From an uncultured Lachnospiraceae bacterium (GTDB lineage Bacteria > Bacillota_A > Clostridia > Lachnospirales > Lachnospiraceae): DNA of 5,676 nucleotides. The stretch is taken from assembly GCA_902766415.1 (NCBI GenBank), contig CACXDR010000210.1, forward strand, positions 1-5,676. The letters run 5' to 3'. This document shows, one piece after another, positions 2-5,676 of the stretch; positions within the stretch are counted from its first letter, which is position 1; every line of letters starts with the position of its first letter. The notes beneath the pieces are model-generated. The model was not told the origin of the DNA. It made no database searches and was given only the letters and a program-made list of their open reading frames with translations. The translations under genes and the position numbers were made by a program.

Positions 2-2008
2 CCCTACCAGTGGGACCTGAACTACGCGAACCCGGTGGTCTTCAACGACATGACCGCCAACATGCTGAACCTCTGCAACCACGGCGTCGACATCATCCGC
101 CTGGACGCGGTCCCGTACATCTGGAAGACGCTCGGCACGAACTGCCGGAACCTTCCGCAGGTCCACACGCTGGTACGCATCATGCACATCGCGGCGGATA
201 TCGTCTGCCCCGGCACGCTGCTCCTCGGAGAGGTCGTCATGGAGCCCTCGAAGGTGGTCCCGTACTTCGGGACGGTGGACAAGCCGGAGTGCCAGATGCT
301 CTACAATGTCACGACCATGGCAAGCACCTGGCATACGGTCGCGACGAAGGACGTGCGCCTGCTCCGCCACCAGATGGATACGGTGTTCGCGCTGCCGAAG
401 CAGTATACCTTCCTGAACTACCTCCGGTGCCACGACGACATCGGCTGGGGTCTCGACTATGAGTTCCTGAAGCAGTTCGGCTTTGACGAGGTCAAGCATA
501 AGAAGTACCTGAACGATTATCTCACCGGCAGCTTCTGGGGCAGCCCCGCGCGCGGCGAGCTTTACAACAACTCGAAGGCGCTCGGCGACGCGCGCCTGAC
601 CGGCACCACGGCGTCGCTCTGCGGCATCGAGGCGGCGGAGTACGAGAAGGACCAGGAGAAGCTTGACAGGGCCATCCGCCTTGACATCATGCTCCACGCG
701 TTCCTGTTCACCCAGAGCGGCATCCCGGTGCTTTACGCGGGAGACGAGATCGGGCAGCTGAACGACTATTCCTATCATCAGGACCCGCTGAAGGCGGACG
801 ACAGCAGGTATCTGCACCGCGGGAACATGAACTGGGACGAGGCGGCGCTCCGCTCGGACCCGGAGTCCAGGCAGGGACGCATCTTCAACGCCCTCCGGAA
901 GCTTGAGACGATCCGTGACGAGTACGGCATGTTCAGCAGCGAGGCGGACGTCTGGACGCTGGAGCCCTACAACGACCACATCCTCGGGATCGGGCGCTAT
1001 TACAAGGACGAAAAGCTCCTTGCCCTCTTCAACTTCAGCGACAGCGACGAGATAGCCTGGATCAACGAGCCGGAGGAGTATACGGACCTGATGACCGGGC
1101 TTCCCAGGGAGGCGAAGGCAGTCGGGATCCCGGCGCACGATTTCGCGTGGCTTTACCACAGCTACAAAAAGCCGCCGGAGAAGGAGCCCATGAAGCTGAT
1201 CTTCCTCGACATCGACGGCACGCTGGTCGTCCCGGGCGAGAACACCCCGCCGGAAAGCGCCCTCGAGGCGATCCGGAAGGCGCAGGCAAAGGGCAACAAG
1301 GTCTTTCTCTGCACGGGGCGGAACCCCGACATGCTCTCACCGCTCCTGAAATTCGGCTTTGACGGGTACGTCGGCGCGTCGGGCGGCTACGTAGTACTCG
1401 GGGACAAGGTGATCTACGACCAGCCCATGGACCAGAAGGACACGGAGACGGCGCTGGAGCTCCTCCACAAGAACGGCGTGTTCTGCACGGTGGAGGCGGT
1501 GGACGGGTCCTTCGGTGACGAGAACCTCGGCGATTTCCTGGCGGGCCAGGGCGAGGGGAACTCGGAGATCGAGCGCTGGAGAAAGGCGCTTTCCTCGAGC
1601 CTGAACATCCGTCCCATGTCAGAGTACGACGGACGCCCTGTCTACAAGGTCGTCATCATGTGCCTTAAGATGGAGCAGCTCGACGAGGCGAAGGCAGCGC
1701 TTTCGGAGCGCTACGACTTCGTCGTGCAGGACATCCCGGAGCACGGCTGCGTGAACGGCGAGCTCGTGAACCGCGCGTTTGACAAGGGCCGCGGCGTGAA
1801 GCGCATCTGCGAGGCGCTTGGCGTCCCGGTCACGGACACCGTCGGCTTCGGCGACAGCATGAACGATCTTGAGATGACGAAGGTCGTCGGGACCTCCGTC
1901 TGCATGGCGAACGGGAGCGAGACGCTGAAGCAGCTTTCAGACATCGTCTGCCCCGCGGTCACGGAGGACGGGCTTTACAAGGCATTTGCGGACCTCGGGC
2001 TGTTCTGA
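2..2008 (+). CDS. Amylosucrase-type GH13 domain fused to Cof-type HAD phosphatase (5' end outside window)
   Basis: Partial: the reading frame is open from the first bases, so the N-terminus lies upstream; 668 residues are visible. Residues 1 to about 388 match the second half of amylosucrase-like GH13 enzymes. They show the nucleophile region GVDIIRLDAV (Asp35, nt 104-106), the acid/base Glu77 in LLGEVV (nt 230-232), and HDD with the stabilising Asp145 (nt 434-436). A DDSRYLHR motif contains Arg269, probably the glucosyl-subsite Arg of amylosucrase. From memory of the Neisseria enzyme, about 250 residues are missing upstream and the GH13 part runs to its normal C-terminus. After a short linker (HSYKKPPEKEP), residues 397-668 form a full-length HAD-IIB/Cof domain: DIDGT (nt 1208-1222), CTGR, a Lys in DKGRGVKRI, and GDSMND (nt 1850-1867). 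Amylosucrases cleave sucrose or transfer its glucose; Cof proteins dephosphorylate sugar phosphates. No signal peptide is visible in this part. The substrate is inferred from the adjacent sucrose-type permease and is unproven. Confidence 0.88.
   Translation, partial: PYQWDLNYANPVVFNDMTANMLNLCNHGVDIIRLDAVPYIWKTLGTNCRNLPQVHTLVRIMHIAADIVCPGTLLLGEVVMEPSKVVPYFGTVDKPECQMLYNVTTMASTWHTVATKDVRLLRHQMDTVFALPKQYTFLNYLRCHDDIGWGLDYEFLKQFGFDEVKHKKYLNDYLTGSFWGSPARGELYNNSKALGDARLTGTTASLCGIEAAEYEKDQEKLDRAIRLDIMLHAFLFTQSGIPVLYAGDEIGQLNDYSYHQDPLKADDSRYLHRGNMNWDEAALRSDPESRQGRIFNALRKLETIRDEYGMFSSEADVWTLEPYNDHILGIGRYYKDEKLLALFNFSDSDEIAWINEPEEYTDLMTGLPREAKAVGIPAHDFAWLYHSYKKPPEKEPMKLIFLDIDGTLVVPGENTPPESALEAIRKAQAKGNKVFLCTGRNPDMLSPLLKFGFDGYVGASGGYVVLGDKVIYDQPMDQKDTETALELLHKNGVFCTVEAVDGSFGDENLGDFLAGQGEGNSEIERWRKALSSSLNIRPMSEYDGRPVYKVVIMCLKMEQLDEAKAALSERYDFVVQDIPEHGCVNGELVNRAFDKGRGVKRICEALGVPVTDTVGFGDSMNDLEMTKVVGTSVCMANGSETLKQLSDIVCPAVTEDGLYKAFADLGLF
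1177..1192 (+). promoter_or_regulatory. Possible internal ribosome binding site and start for the HAD domain
   Basis: Just before the in-frame ATG at 1190, where the HAD domain begins (MKLIFLDIDGT), the sequence reads GGAG (1177-1180) followed directly by AAGGAG (1181-1186). The first lies 9 nt from the ATG and the second 3 nt. A stand-alone HAD protein of 272 residues could be made from here in addition to the fusion. The codons also encode the plausible linker PPEKEP, so the purine-rich match may be incidental. Confidence 0.3.
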
Positions 2009-2050: not shown

Positions 2051-3922
2051 ATGGCACTTGACTACAGGAAATGCGCGCAGGAGATCGTCGACCATATCGG
2101 CGGCCGCGAGAATGTCGCGCAGGCGGCGCACTGCGCCACCAGGCTGAGGCTGGTTATCAAGGATAACAGCAAGGTCGACAAGGACTACCTTGACAATGTG
2201 GACGGCGTCAAGGGCATGTTCGAGTCTAACGGACAGCTGCAGCTCATCATCGGTACCGGAACCGTCAACAAGGTCTATGATGAGTTCCTTTCCATCACCG
2301 GCATGTCCGCCGCGACCAAGGATGACGTCAAGGCCGCGGCAGCCGCGAAGCAGCCGCTCTGGAAGCAGCTTCTGAAGCCGATCGGCGACGTCTTCGTCCC
2401 GATCCTTCCGGCGATCGTCGCTTCCGGTCTTATGATGGGTCTTGTCGAGGCGCTCGCGAAAGCCATCCCGAGCTTCGCCTCGAGTGACTGGTTCGGATAC
2501 CTTGACATGATCGCGAACACCGCGTTCGCCTACCTGCCGGTCATCGTCGCCGTTTCCGCGGCGCGCGTGTTCGGCGGAAACATCTTCCTCGGCGCTGTCA
2601 TCGGCCTTATGATGATCCACTCCGCACTGACCAACGGCTGGGCAGCAGCGGGCGGCTATGAGGTATGGTACCTCTTCGGCAACGGGATCAAGATCGGCAA
2701 CTATACGCTGGGCCAGATCAACAAGCTCGGCTACCAGGGACACGTCATACCGGTCATCATAGCGATATGGATCATGTGCAAGATCGAGAAGAAGCTGCAC
2801 TCCATCGTTCCGGAGATGCTGGACCTCTTCGTCGTCCCGATCACCACGGTGTTCCTTACCGCGACCCTGACCTTCATGATCATCGGCCCGATCTTCTCCG
2901 GTCTTGAGACGCTCGTCCTGAACGGCGCGAAGGTCCTTGTCACCAACCCGCTCGGCGCCTGCGTCATGGGCGCGATCTACCCGGCGACCGTCGTCATGGG
3001 CCTCCACCACATGTACAACGTCATCGAGTCGGGCATGCTGGCGTCTGCCGACTTCGGCAACCTCAACATCTGGATGCCCATCGCGAGCTCCGCGAACTTC
3101 GCGCAGTTCGGCGCCTGCCTTGCGGTCGGCCTTAAGTGCAGGAACGCGAAGACCAAGCAGGTCGCGATCCCGTCCTCCATGTCCGCTGCCCTTGGTATTA
3201 CCGAGCCGGCGATCTTCGGTGTCAACATGCGCTTCTTCAAGCCGTTCGTCGCTGGTATGATCGGCGGCGCGGTCGGATCCATCTTCGGCGCGTTCACCGG
3301 TCTCGGCGCATCCTCCTATGGCGTTACCGGTATCCCGGGCTACCTGACCATCAATAACCCGGTCCTCTACACGATCATGCTTGCGATCGCAGGCGGCATC
3401 GCGTTCGCGATCACCTGGGTGGTCTGGAAGGAAGAGGAGAAGAAGCCGGCGGCCAAGGCTCCGGCAGCGGCGGACGTCAAGGCTCCGACGAACGCGATCA
3501 TCCGCTGCGGTGCAGGCGAGATCATCCAGCCGGTCGCAGGCTCCATGATCAGGCAGGAGAATATTCCGGATGATACCTTCGCTTCAGGCGTCCTCGGCGG
3601 CGGCTGCGCGATCGCTCCGGAGAACGGCGTCGTGTTCGCACCGTTCGACGGCACCATTTCCTCGGTCGCGGATTCCAAGCACGCGATCGGCATCACCGGC
3701 CCCGGCGACATGGAGGTCCTGATCCACGTCGGCGTCGACACCGTTTCCATGAACGGCGACGGCTTTGAGGACTTCGTCAAGGAAGGCGACGAGGTCAAGG
3801 CAGGCCAGAAGATCATGAAATTCGACCGCGAGAAGATCAAGGCGGCAGGCCATCCGGACTGCGTCGTCGTCCTTCTCACGAATTCCGATGATTTTGATGA
3901 TGTTTCCATTCAGGATTCATAA
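2051..3922 (+). CDS. scrA: PTS permease EIIBCA, sucrose (ScrA) type
   Basis: A complete membrane permease of 623 residues that imports and phosphorylates a sugar. The N-terminal IIB domain (about 1-85) carries the phospho-cysteine Cys28 in AAHCATRLRLV (nt 2132-2134). The VKGMFESNGQLQLIIG and VNKVYDEF stretches resemble sucrose permeases more than trehalose or beta-glucoside ones. The IIC domain (about 100-460) is a series of hydrophobic segments with the substrate-site motif GITEPAIFGVN (from residue 382, nt 3194). A Lys/Ala/Pro-rich linker (about 460-485) leads to a glucose-family IIA domain with both expected histidines: His544 in SKHAIGI and phospho-acceptor His559 in LIHVGVDTV (nt 3725-3727). 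Their 15-residue spacing equals that of His75 and His90 in E. coli Crr. It follows the GH13-HAD gene by 42 bp and is followed by ptsH and ptsI, so its phosphate donors are encoded next door. The family is certain; sucrose specificity is inferred from motifs and neighbours. Confidence 0.9.
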   Translation: MALDYRKCAQEIVDHIGGRENVAQAAHCATRLRLVIKDNSKVDKDYLDNVDGVKGMFESNGQLQLIIGTGTVNKVYDEFLSITGMSAATKDDVKAAAAAKQPLWKQLLKPIGDVFVPILPAIVASGLMMGLVEALAKAIPSFASSDWFGYLDMIANTAFAYLPVIVAVSAARVFGGNIFLGAVIGLMMIHSALTNGWAAAGGYEVWYLFGNGIKIGNYTLGQINKLGYQGHVIPVIIAIWIMCKIEKKLHSIVPEMLDLFVVPITTVFLTATLTFMIIGPIFSGLETLVLNGAKVLVTNPLGACVMGAIYPATVVMGLHHMYNVIESGMLASADFGNLNIWMPIASSANFAQFGACLAVGLKCRNAKTKQVAIPSSMSAALGITEPAIFGVNMRFFKPFVAGMIGGAVGSIFGAFTGLGASSYGVTGIPGYLTINNPVLYTIMLAIAGGIAFAITWVVWKEEEKKPAAKAPAAADVKAPTNAIIRCGAGEIIQPVAGSMIRQENIPDDTFASGVLGGGCAIAPENGVVFAPFDGTISSVADSKHAIGITGPGDMEVLIHVGVDTVSMNGDGFEDFVKEGDEVKAGQKIMKFDREKIKAAGHPDCVVVLLTNSDDFDDVSIQDS

Positions 3923-4002: not shown

Positions 4003-4266
4003 ATGAAAGAAGTAAAGTATACCATCGTTGATCCTGTCGGCTTCCACGCAAGACCCGCAGGCGCAGTTGCGAAAGCCCTTAAGGCGTTCGACGCGAAGGT
4101 CACTGTGTTCAAGGGCGACAAGAGCGCGGATATGACAAAGCTTCTCAAGGTCATGGGCCTCGGGATCAAGCAGGGCGACGAGATCACCGTCCAGATCGAC
4201 GGCGCGGCAGAGGCAGAGTGCGCTGCGGCTCTTGACGCTTTCATGAAGGAGAACAACTTAATCTGA
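4003..4266 (+). CDS. ptsH: Phosphocarrier protein HPr
   Basis: A complete 87-residue cytoplasmic phosphocarrier that takes phosphate from Enzyme I and passes it to IIA domains. The active-site motif GFHARPAGAV places the catalytic histidine at the canonical position 15, and the length is typical of the family. The start is supported by AAAGGAG (3987-3993), 9 nt before the ATG. Aligned without gaps to Bacillus HPr (anchored by His15 and by LGI at 53-55), position 46 is lysine (nt 4138-4140). That site is the regulatory serine phosphorylated by HPr kinase in many Bacillota; here Thr45 is adjacent, and the local sequence is DMTKLLKVMGLGI. The phosphotransfer role is therefore intact, but Ser46-based catabolite signalling through CcpA looks absent or altered in this protein. 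It has its own promoter and is separated by 182 bp from ptsI. Confidence 0.97.
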   Translation: MKEVKYTIVDPVGFHARPAGAVAKALKAFDAKVTVFKGDKSADMTKLLKVMGLGIKQGDEITVQIDGAAEAECAAALDAFMKENNLI

Positions 4267-4448: not shown

Positions 4449-5676
4449 ATGCAAGTTGGAACCGGTAAAAGCATCCTGAACGGCATCGCGATCGGAAAGA
4501 TCAAGATCTACAAGGCGCCGAAGAGAGAGATCTCCATGGAACTCGTGCAGGACACCGCGCATGAGCTCGAGCGCTTTGACGACGCTGTCGAGAAGGTCAT
4601 CGACCAGCAGAACCTTCTGTACGAGAAGGCGAAGGTCACCGCGGGCGAGGACAGCGCCGCGATCTTCGAGGTCCACGCGATGATGATGCAGGACGACGAC
4701 CTCCTGGACGCTGTCAAGGAGATCATCACGGAGCAGAAGCACTGCGCGGAATATGCGGTCAACACCGCGTTCGACAACCAGGCACAGGTCTTCGCCTCAA
4801 TGGACGACCCGTACATGCAGGCGAGAAGCGCCGACATCGACGACCTGAAGGGCGCGACGCTCGACGTCCTCATGGGCCTGAACACCGACGCCATGCAGGG
4901 AAATGAGCCGGCCATCCTGGTCGCAGAGGACCTTGCCCCGTCCGAGACCGTCAAGCTCGACAAGAGCCTGCTGCTCGGCATTGTCACCCGCGAGGGTTCC
5001 TCCAACAGCCACACCGCGATCCTTGCCCGCAGCATGAACCTTCCGGCACTGATCCAGTGCAAGGAGATCAACGACGAGTGGGACGGAAAGCTTGGTATCA
5101 TCGACGGCTACAACAGCTGCGTCTACGTTGACCCGACGCCGGACCTCCAGAAGACGCTCGGCGAAAAGCAGAAGGCGGACCAGGCGAAGCTTGCCCTGCT
5201 CCAGGAGCTGAAGGGCAAGTCGAACACCACGATCGACGGGCATACCATCAAGGTGTTTGCGAATATCGGCGGACCGTCCGATCTCGGCGCTGTCCAGCAG
5301 AATGACGCGGGCGGTGTCGGCCTGTTCCGTTCCGAGTTCGTCTACCTCAACTCGAAGCAGGAGCCGACCGAGGAGGAGCAGTTCCACGCCTACAAGCTCG
5401 CGGTCGAGACGCTCGCGCCGAAGACCGTCGTCATCCGCACCTGCGATATCGGCGCGGACAAGACCATCGACTATATGAAGCTTGACCACGAAGAGAACCC
5501 GGCGCTCGGCTACAGGGCCATCCGCATCTGCCTCACCAGGAAGGAATTCTTCAAGAAGCAGCTGCGCGCCCTGCTCCGCGCATCCGCCTACGGCCACCTC
5601 GCCATCATGTTCCCGATGATCATCTCCGTCCGCGAACGCCGCGAGGCGAAGGACATCCTCCAGGAGTGCAAAGAAG
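4449..5676 (+). CDS. ptsI: PTS Enzyme I, phosphoenolpyruvate-protein phosphotransferase (3' end outside window)
   Basis: Partial: 409 codons are visible and the frame is still open at the window edge; Enzyme I is usually about 540-575 residues. It autophosphorylates from PEP and passes phosphate to HPr in the cytoplasm. The start ATG is supported by AGGGAGG (4434-4440), 8 nt upstream, and by the typical opening (GKSILNGIAIGKIKIY). The N-terminal and swivel domains include the phospho-histidine His188 in SSNSHTAILARSMNLPA (nt 5010-5012). The PEP-binding barrel begins with GGVGLFRSEFVYL and PTEEEQF, followed by VIRTCDIGADKTIDYM and EENPALGYRAIRI. These contain the two conserved PEP-binding arginines (FRSEF and IRT). 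The C-terminal catalytic cysteine region is beyond the window. It lies downstream of ptsH as usual, but separated by an unusually long structured gap. Confidence 0.97.
   Translation, partial: MQVGTGKSILNGIAIGKIKIYKAPKREISMELVQDTAHELERFDDAVEKVIDQQNLLYEKAKVTAGEDSAAIFEVHAMMMQDDDLLDAVKEIITEQKHCAEYAVNTAFDNQAQVFASMDDPYMQARSADIDDLKGATLDVLMGLNTDAMQGNEPAILVAEDLAPSETVKLDKSLLLGIVTREGSSNSHTAILARSMNLPALIQCKEINDEWDGKLGIIDGYNSCVYVDPTPDLQKTLGEKQKADQAKLALLQELKGKSNTTIDGHTIKVFANIGGPSDLGAVQQNDAGGVGLFRSEFVYLNSKQEPTEEEQFHAYKLAVETLAPKTVVIRTCDIGADKTIDYMKLDHEENPALGYRAIRICLTRKEFFKKQLRALLRASAYGHLAIMFPMIISVRERREAKDILQECKE

What the first reader, a model, noticed from the sequence alone, without database searches (positions are those of the whole stretch)
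2..2008. Amylosucrase-type GH13 fused to a HAD phosphatase beside a sucrose-type PTS
A sucrose PTS normally feeds a GH32 sucrose-6-phosphate hydrolase. Here the gene 42 bp upstream of the permease joins a catalytically intact GH13 amylosucrase-like domain to an intact Cof-type phosphatase. GH13_4 enzymes act on an unphosphorylated glucosyl unit, and the probable subsite -1 Arg is kept. One reading is that the HAD domain strips phosphate from sucrose 6-phosphate and the GH13 domain then hydrolyses sucrose or uses it to build glucan. Alternatives are that the GH13 domain accepts phosphosucrose directly, or that the HAD domain acts on a released hexose phosphate. The motifs are seen; the pathway is inference.
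Basis: partly seen in the sequence, partly recalled or inferred. Interest (0 to 1): 0.72.

Follow-up and report, generated by a model that had tools for sequence, protein, structure and literature searches.

The report
Sucrose enzyme fused to sugar-phosphate phosphatase
Gut and rumen bacteria appear to import sucrose with a phosphate on it, remove the phosphate with a dedicated phosphatase that is fused here to the next enzyme, and then split the sucrose or build it into storage glucan, instead of relying on the usual sucrose-phosphate hydrolase.

Summary
Bases 2-2008 encode the last 668 residues of a roughly 897-residue protein: an amylosucrase-type GH13 domain joined to an intact Cof-type HAD phosphatase. 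A ScrA-like PTS permease, HPr and enzyme I follow. The fusion is not a local sequencing error: 43 of 120 listed homologues carry both domains, and fusion state changed at least three times on a tree. In most relatives the phosphatase is a separate gene of the same operon.

In 250 related genomes the phosphatase occurs in 19; all 19 have the GH13 and 18 have the PTS. None of 24 genomes with PTS but no GH13 has it. Where GH13 lies elsewhere in the genome, the phosphatase stays beside the PTS (5 of 5). PTS genes have this phosphatase (18 of 55) or GH32 (31 of 55) beside them, both only once. The listed glucose-binding residues of amylosucrase are kept. So the phosphatase most likely turns imported sucrose 6-phosphate into sucrose for GH13.

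Against: several lineages keep GH13 and PTS without it, most genomes also encode GH32, and no biochemistry exists. It is a new variant of known logic (MapP; cyanobacterial sps-spp-amylosucrase operon).

The parts
2..1171 (+). GH13 amylosucrase-type domain (C-terminal part; the first 229 residues lie left of the window). Nucleophile Asp 104-106, acid/base Glu 230-232, His-Asp 431-436, salt-bridge Arg 806-808
   Evidence: Foldseek rows 1-26 for P0001 are amylosucrases and sucrose hydrolases
1172..1186 (+). short linker between the two domains
   Evidence: read from the translation and the Pfam limits
1187..2005 (+). Cof-type HAD-IIB phosphatase domain, motifs intact (Asp-x-Asp from 1208, Thr 1313, Lys 1784, GDSMND 1850); stop codon 2006-2008
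1190..1192 (+). in-frame ATG at the start of the HAD domain with GGAGAAGGAG just upstream: a possible internal start for free phosphatase
   Evidence: reading of the sequence, untested
2051..3922 (+). PTS IIBCA permease, ScrA/beta-glucoside type; IIB Cys in HCATR from 2129, IIA His in VLIHVGVDTV from 3716
4003..4266 (+). HPr phosphocarrier with His15; position 46 is Lys, not Ser
4449..5675 (+). enzyme I of the PTS, cut by the right edge

Best explanation
The operon imports sucrose through its own PTS, which phosphorylates it to sucrose 6-phosphate (glucose moiety). The HAD domain is a sucrose-6-phosphate phosphatase that returns it to sucrose inside the cell. The GH13 domain then takes the glucosyl unit, releasing fructose, and either passes it to alpha-1,4-glucan or to water. 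Fructose goes to the fructokinase (PfkB or ROK) encoded beside GH13 in many relatives. The HAD is thus an adaptor between a phosphorylating importer and an enzyme that needs free sucrose; the fusion puts the two steps on one chain. Shown here: the gene structure, the intact motifs, the distribution and neighbourhoods. Inferred: the PTS substrate, both activities, and the fate of glucose. Costs are even if the glucosyl unit goes to glucan and is recovered by phosphorolysis: one PEP and one ATP per sucrose, as for PTS plus a GH32 hydrolase (inference).
For: Sample of 250 genomes of one family: HAD (E<=1e-60) in 19, GH13 in 71, PTS (E<=1e-160) in 53. All 19 HAD genomes have GH13 (hypergeometric P 6e-12). 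Among the 71 GH13 genomes: HAD+PTS 18, HAD only 1, PTS only 11, neither 41 (Fisher P 2e-8); 0 of 24 PTS genomes without GH13 have HAD. HAD lies within 1 kb of the PTS in 17 of 19 HAD genomes, and in 5 of 5 genomes where GH13 is unlinked. Of 55 PTS hits 18 have HAD beside them, 31 GH32, 1 both. Close PTS relatives without HAD and GH13 (L087-L089) sit beside GH32, which points to sucrose. Residues equivalent to D144, H187, R284, H392, D393 and R509 of Neisseria amylosucrase are unchanged in every row that covers them (78-80 of 80 loci, 38 of 38 proteins). Fusion state changed at least 3 times on the tree. L028 has GH13 beside an MFS_2 transporter and neither HAD nor PTS was found in its genome.
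Against: GH13 next to PTS without HAD: 7 of 80 loci and 4 of 55 PTS hits of the family sample; on the PTS tree the window's nearest rows are three of these. HAD without a PTS found: L016/G012 and G213; in G106 the PTS is unlinked. GH32 is present in most genomes, and 6 of 80 loci hold a GH32 cluster in the fetched stretch, in L038 and L064 near the operon. Two of 31 aligned fused proteins have lost the HAD nucleophile (P0042 Asp to Glu, P0061 Asp to Ser) and 5 of 31 lack the exact GDS[MI]ND motif, so in some the domain may not be a phosphatase. Related genomes are not independent, and many are incomplete MAGs.
Confidence: 0.74

Rival explanations
1. GH13 accepts sucrose 6-phosphate directly and releases glucose 6-phosphate and fructose; the HAD is a relief valve that removes excess hexose phosphate when sugar phosphates build up.
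For: Seven of 80 loci and four of 55 PTS hits keep GH13 beside PTS without HAD. Structural neighbours of the HAD model include general hexose-phosphate phosphatases such as BT4131.
Against: Subsite -1 is that of amylosucrase, including the D144-R509 pair that PMC6949346 section 5 says gives the pocket its topology, and no position separates HAD from HAD-less GH13s. A general relief valve would not be confined to genomes with GH13 (0 of 24 PTS genomes without GH13 have it). Six of the seven HAD-less loci lie in genomes with 4-8 GH32 matches.
Confidence: 0.13
2. The PTS imports another glucoside (for example a sucrose isomer or other alpha-glucoside), and HAD and GH13 act on that.
For: The permease is below the curated cut-offs of both the sucrose and the beta-glucoside models and forms a branch of its own beside canonical GH32-linked permeases.
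Against: Three close relatives of the permease sit in operons with GH32, and GH13 is of the amylosucrase/sucrose hydrolase type by sequence and fold.
Confidence: 0.1
3. The HAD acts on a product (fructose or glucose phosphate) for regulation, and the fusion merely reflects gene adjacency.
For: In 23 of 56 loci the HAD gene overlaps GH13 or starts within 60 bases of its stop, so a chance fusion needs only a lost stop; some fused HADs have damaged motifs.
Against: Where GH13 is unlinked, HAD stays with the PTS, not with GH13, which points to the product of the PTS as its substrate.
Confidence: 0.08

Closest known systems
MapP, maltose 6'-phosphate phosphatase of Enterococcus faecalis (seen as passages in PMC3737437; the original paper is not held)
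   Same: A phosphatase gene beside a PTS permease turns a PTS-made disaccharide phosphate back into the free sugar for an enzyme that needs it unphosphorylated.
   Different: Maltose instead of sucrose; [quoted passage not shown] no fusion to the next enzyme is mentioned in the passages seen.
[quoted passage not shown] PCC 7002 (passages of PMC9971976 and PMC6949346)
   Same: A HAD phosphatase makes sucrose from sucrose 6-phosphate, next to amylosucrase and fructokinase.
   Different: There sucrose 6-phosphate is synthesised in the cell; here it would come from a PTS. The HAD here is Cof-type and scores below the SPP-subfamily cut-off.
Classical scr operon: ScrA permease, GH32 ScrB sucrose-6-phosphate hydrolase, fructokinase, LacI regulator (general knowledge; GH32-PTS pairs seen)
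   Same: PTS uptake, fructokinase, LacI-type regulator.
   Different: GH32 is replaced by HAD plus GH13.
Faecalibacterium prausnitzii fructan operon with amylosucrase, GH32, fructokinase and ABC transporter (passages of PMC8894670)
   Same: Amylosucrase-type enzyme with fructokinase and LacI regulator in a gut Firmicute.
   Different: Unphosphorylated import and no HAD among the genes listed; sequence relation to the window not tested.

Membership tests
GH13 subfamily 4 type (amylosucrase/sucrose hydrolase), as a sequence family | Catalytic Asp, Glu and Asp of GH13 | tested here: met
GH13 subfamily 4 type (amylosucrase/sucrose hydrolase), as a sequence family | Subsite -1 set of Neisseria amylosucrase (D144, H187, R284, H392, D393, R509; list from PMC6949346 section 5) | tested here: met
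   on P0001 (D121, H164, R262, H373, D374, R498); D144 and H187 lie left of the window
GH13 subfamily 4 type (amylosucrase/sucrose hydrolase), as a sequence family | Overall fold of amylosucrase | tested here: met
   AlphaFold2 model of P0001, mean pLDDT 85; Foldseek rows 1-26, TM by target about 0.87-0.90
Amylosucrase proper (glucan-forming, EC 2.4.1.4) | Arg446, which PMC6949346 section 5 links to polymerisation | tested here: met
   R427 of P0001
Amylosucrase proper (glucan-forming, EC 2.4.1.4) | Phe417, said in PMC6949346 section 5 to be present in all microbial amylosucrases | tested here: not met
   Tyr at the aligned place (P0001 Y398, window 506-508); 51 of 80 loci Tyr, 29 Phe
Amylosucrase proper (glucan-forming, EC 2.4.1.4) | Makes alpha-1,4-glucan from sucrose | not testable with these tools
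   needs assay
Cof-type HAD-IIB phosphatases | TIGR00099 above cut-off; HAD motifs intact | tested here: met
   151.6 bits against 137; motif residues invariant in 30 rows
Sucrose-phosphate phosphatase (SPP) family | SPP-subfamily model TIGR01482 above cut-off | tested here: not met
   69.4 bits against 107.15; PF05116 passes its cut-off but only over residues 592-642 of the fused protein
Sucrose-phosphate phosphatase (SPP) family | Hydrolyses sucrose 6-phosphate | not testable with these tools
   needs assay
Sucrose-specific PTS (ScrA) | TIGR01996 above cut-off | tested here: not met
   494.3 bits against 559.3
Sucrose-specific PTS (ScrA) | Genes of sucrose breakdown beside it | tested here: met
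   GH13 here; GH32 beside close relatives L087-L089
MapP phosphatases | Endonuclease/exonuclease/phosphatase fold | tested here: not met
   HAD by Pfam and by fold comparison

The most novel reading that the evidence does not exclude
A PTS-to-glycogen shunt on one polypeptide: the fused protein takes sucrose 6-phosphate straight from the PTS, removes the phosphate and adds the glucosyl unit to glycogen without ADP-glucose, so that sugar uptake and storage are coupled at no extra ATP cost compared with GH32 hydrolysis followed by glycolysis.
Probability: 0.4. Interest if true: 0.78.

Novelty: new variant of a known kind. Interest (0 to 1): 0.62.

Why it matters
It would be a sucrose counterpart of MapP: a phosphatase that lets a PTS feed an enzyme that needs the free sugar. 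Members occur in cultured strains (Kandleria vitulina, Sharpea azabuensis, Oribacterium, Clostridium vitabionis) as well as many rumen and gut MAGs, so it bears on how these bacteria handle dietary sucrose and may store it. It also warns annotation pipelines: a sucrose PTS without GH32 beside it, or an 'amylosucrase' with a trailing HAD, can be one pathway. Repeated changes of fusion state offer a natural set for testing whether joining the two steps matters.

Tried and rejected
Fusion as an assembly or frameshift error: rejected, because 43 of 120 listed homologues have both domains and P0001 is nearly identical over the junction.

'No GH32 in the genome' as the rule: rejected as a general statement. 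Kept in weaker form: GH32 is rarely beside the PTS when HAD is.

Literature: eight searches listed no paper that describes a PTS, HAD and amylosucrase pathway; only open-licence papers are held, and I judged by listings and passages.

Limits: the 250 genomes are a draw from one family and of unstated completeness; E-value limits were chosen by me (1e-60, 1e-60, 1e-160). The order of domains relative to each other in the model was not examined.

Full report
What is there. The window's first gene (2-2008, +) is open at the left edge and 668 codons long in the window. Its first part is a GH13 domain of the amylosucrase kind and its last part (from about residue 397) a Cof-type HAD phosphatase. 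A 897-residue protein, P0001, is identical to it except at 5 of 668 positions and supplies the missing 229 N-terminal residues. An AlphaFold2 model of P0001 has mean pLDDT 85 and pTM 0.70; the first 26 Foldseek rows are amylosucrases and sucrose hydrolases. After 42 bases comes a PTS permease with domains IIB, IIC and IIA, then HPr and enzyme I. The permease falls below the curated cut-offs of both the sucrose and the beta-glucoside model. The window's own genome is not held.

Active sites. The review PMC6949346 (section 5 read in full) lists the glucosyl-binding residues of Neisseria amylosucrase. By the alignments the residues equivalent to D144, H187, R284, H392, D393 and R509 are unchanged in 38 of 38 aligned proteins and in all rows of 80 loci that cover them (78 to 80). 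Arg446, linked there to polymerisation, is kept; Phe417 is Tyr in the window and in 51 of 80 loci (Phe in 29). The HAD motifs are intact here, and their residues are invariant in 30 aligned rows. Of 31 aligned fused proteins, 29 keep the FLDxDGTL motif and 26 keep the exact GDS[MI]ND motif; P0042 and P0061 have lost the nucleophile.

The operon elsewhere. A scan of one-per-species genomes gave 80 loci, the best of 175, mostly Lachnospiraceae and Erysipelotrichales relatives, including Kandleria, Sharpea, Oribacterium and Clostridium vitabionis. In 57 of 80 the HAD is encoded in the locus: one fused (L003) and 56 as a separate gene. In 23 of these 56 it overlaps the GH13 gene or starts within 60 bases of its stop, and in 25 it lies more than 700 bases on, in most cases with a called LacI-type gene between. 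A PTS IIBC match is in the same locus in 54 of the 57; of the other three, L006 and L040 end at the contig edge and L016 truly lacks it. A PfkB cluster is found in 16 of 80 loci and a ROK cluster in 12 (named by one representative each; members in L003, L029 and L077 checked). In L003, the other fused case, the PfkB gene ends just before the fused gene.

Distribution test. In 250 genomes drawn from the family of C. vitabionis, the HAD (E <= 1e-60) is in 19, GH13 (E <= 1e-60) in 71 and the PTS (E <= 1e-160) in 53. All 19 HAD genomes have GH13 (hypergeometric P 6e-12). Of the 71 GH13 genomes 18 have HAD and PTS, 1 HAD only, 11 PTS only and 41 neither (Fisher P 2e-8), and none of the 24 PTS genomes without GH13 has HAD. 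The HAD thus behaves as an adaptor needed when this importer and this enzyme meet. These P values ignore kinship among genomes.

Position test. For 22 loci without HAD I searched the genome: 5 have a close HAD (59-67% identity), one a distant one (38%) and 16 none at 1e-30. In all 5 the HAD stands directly beside a PTS permease although GH13 is elsewhere. Ten GH13 genomes with neither HAD nor PTS at the locus had no PTS match of 50% identity or more (best 36%). In L028 the GH13 stands beside an MFS_2 transporter.

HAD or GH32. Of the 55 PTS hits of the sample, 18 have HAD within 1 kb, 31 have GH32 within 4.5 kb, 1 has both, 4 have only GH13 and 3 none of them (Fisher P 8e-8). On a tree of 89 permeases the HAD-linked ones fall in one 81-row set (support 100), apart from seven GH32-linked rows and one row (L109) with both; three GH32-linked rows lie inside it. 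Those three, L087 to L089, have operons of PTS, HPr, enzyme I, LacI and GH32 (L087 with ROK too) without HAD or GH13. This exchange of HAD plus GH13 for GH32 around related permeases is the best evidence that the substrate is sucrose 6-phosphate.

What does not fit. Seven of 80 loci (L019, L026, L029, L036, L046, L062, L077) and four PTS hits of the sample have GH13 and PTS but no HAD (L077 and the hit in G079 are the same locus). On the permease tree the window's nearest rows are three of them. Six of the seven genomes have 4 to 8 GH32 matches, the seventh none; the mean is 4.6 against 1.8 in 55 HAD genomes (Mann-Whitney P 0.010; rows of split matches counted). So GH32 may do the work there, but direct use of sucrose 6-phosphate by GH13 is not excluded. 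HAD without a detected PTS occurs in L016/G012 and, with a distant HAD, in G213; in G106 the HAD is beside GH13 and the PTS elsewhere. GH32 is present in 42 of 50 and 23 of 30 genomes behind the loci (a few matches are fragments) and in 12 of 19 HAD genomes of the sample. It is not found in seven of those 19, among them C. vitabionis (G008) and Lachnospiraceae bacterium ACC2 (G049).

Fusion. On a tree of 106 GH13 domains the fused state (27 rows) needs 6 changes, at least 3 by well supported branches; gains and losses cannot be told apart. P0005 still has a Lys-rich linker like the C-terminal tails of unfused enzymes. Repeated joining of neighbours is what one expects of enzymes that act in turn, though adjacency alone makes it easy.

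How it would work. PTS makes sucrose 6-phosphate; HAD frees sucrose; GH13 releases fructose and passes glucose to glucan or water; fructokinase phosphorylates fructose. If glucan is made and later phosphorolysed, the cost is one PEP and one ATP per sucrose, the same as for GH32, so removing the phosphate wastes nothing (inference). Glycogen phosphorylase is found in 48 of 50 and glycogen synthase in 50 of 50 genomes (49 over the cut-off) behind HAD operons, which allows this but does not show it.

Known parallels. MapP of Enterococcus faecalis does for maltose what is proposed here for sucrose, with an unrelated phosphatase (passages of PMC3737437). Synechococcus PCC 7002 has sucrose-phosphate synthase and phosphatase genes in an operon with amylosucrase and fructokinase (passages of PMC9971976, and PMC6949346). 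In the window the PTS would take the place of the synthase. Eight paper searches listed nothing that describes the present arrangement; the library holds open-licence papers only. Verdict: a new variant of a known kind, with a well supported role for the HAD and an open question on glucan.

Noticed in passing
L005, L015, L017, L021 and others (29 of 80 loci); P0005: Many unfused GH13s carry a C-terminal tail of 40-213 residues rich in Lys, Ala, Pro, Glu and Thr (Lys 15-36%), like a histone H1 tail; the fused protein P0005 has such a stretch as its linker. Purpose unknown.
   Followed up: partly
4003-4266: The operon's HPr keeps His15 but has Lys at position 46, where HPr usually has the regulatory Ser (recalled); 33 of 43 rows of operon HPrs including the window have Lys there, 9 Ser, 1 Ala. 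With its own enzyme I this looks like a private phosphate relay outside catabolite control.
   Followed up: partly
1172-1192: GGAGAAGGAG followed by ATG in frame at the start of the HAD domain: free phosphatase might also be made from an internal start.
   Followed up: no
P0061, P0042: Two fused homologues have lost the HAD nucleophile (Ser or Glu in place of Asp), a possible decay of the phosphatase half after fusion.
   Followed up: no
L014:1102-5655: GH13 followed by a 202-residue protein with only a IIA match and then enzyme I; no HAD or full PTS was found in that genome: a remnant or an assembly fault.
   Followed up: no
L095:5020-9855 (G279): A PTS of the same branch followed by a distant HAD (38% identity), HPr and enzyme I, without GH13 or GH32 near it: perhaps a second phosphatase-linked PTS for another sugar.
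   Followed up: partly
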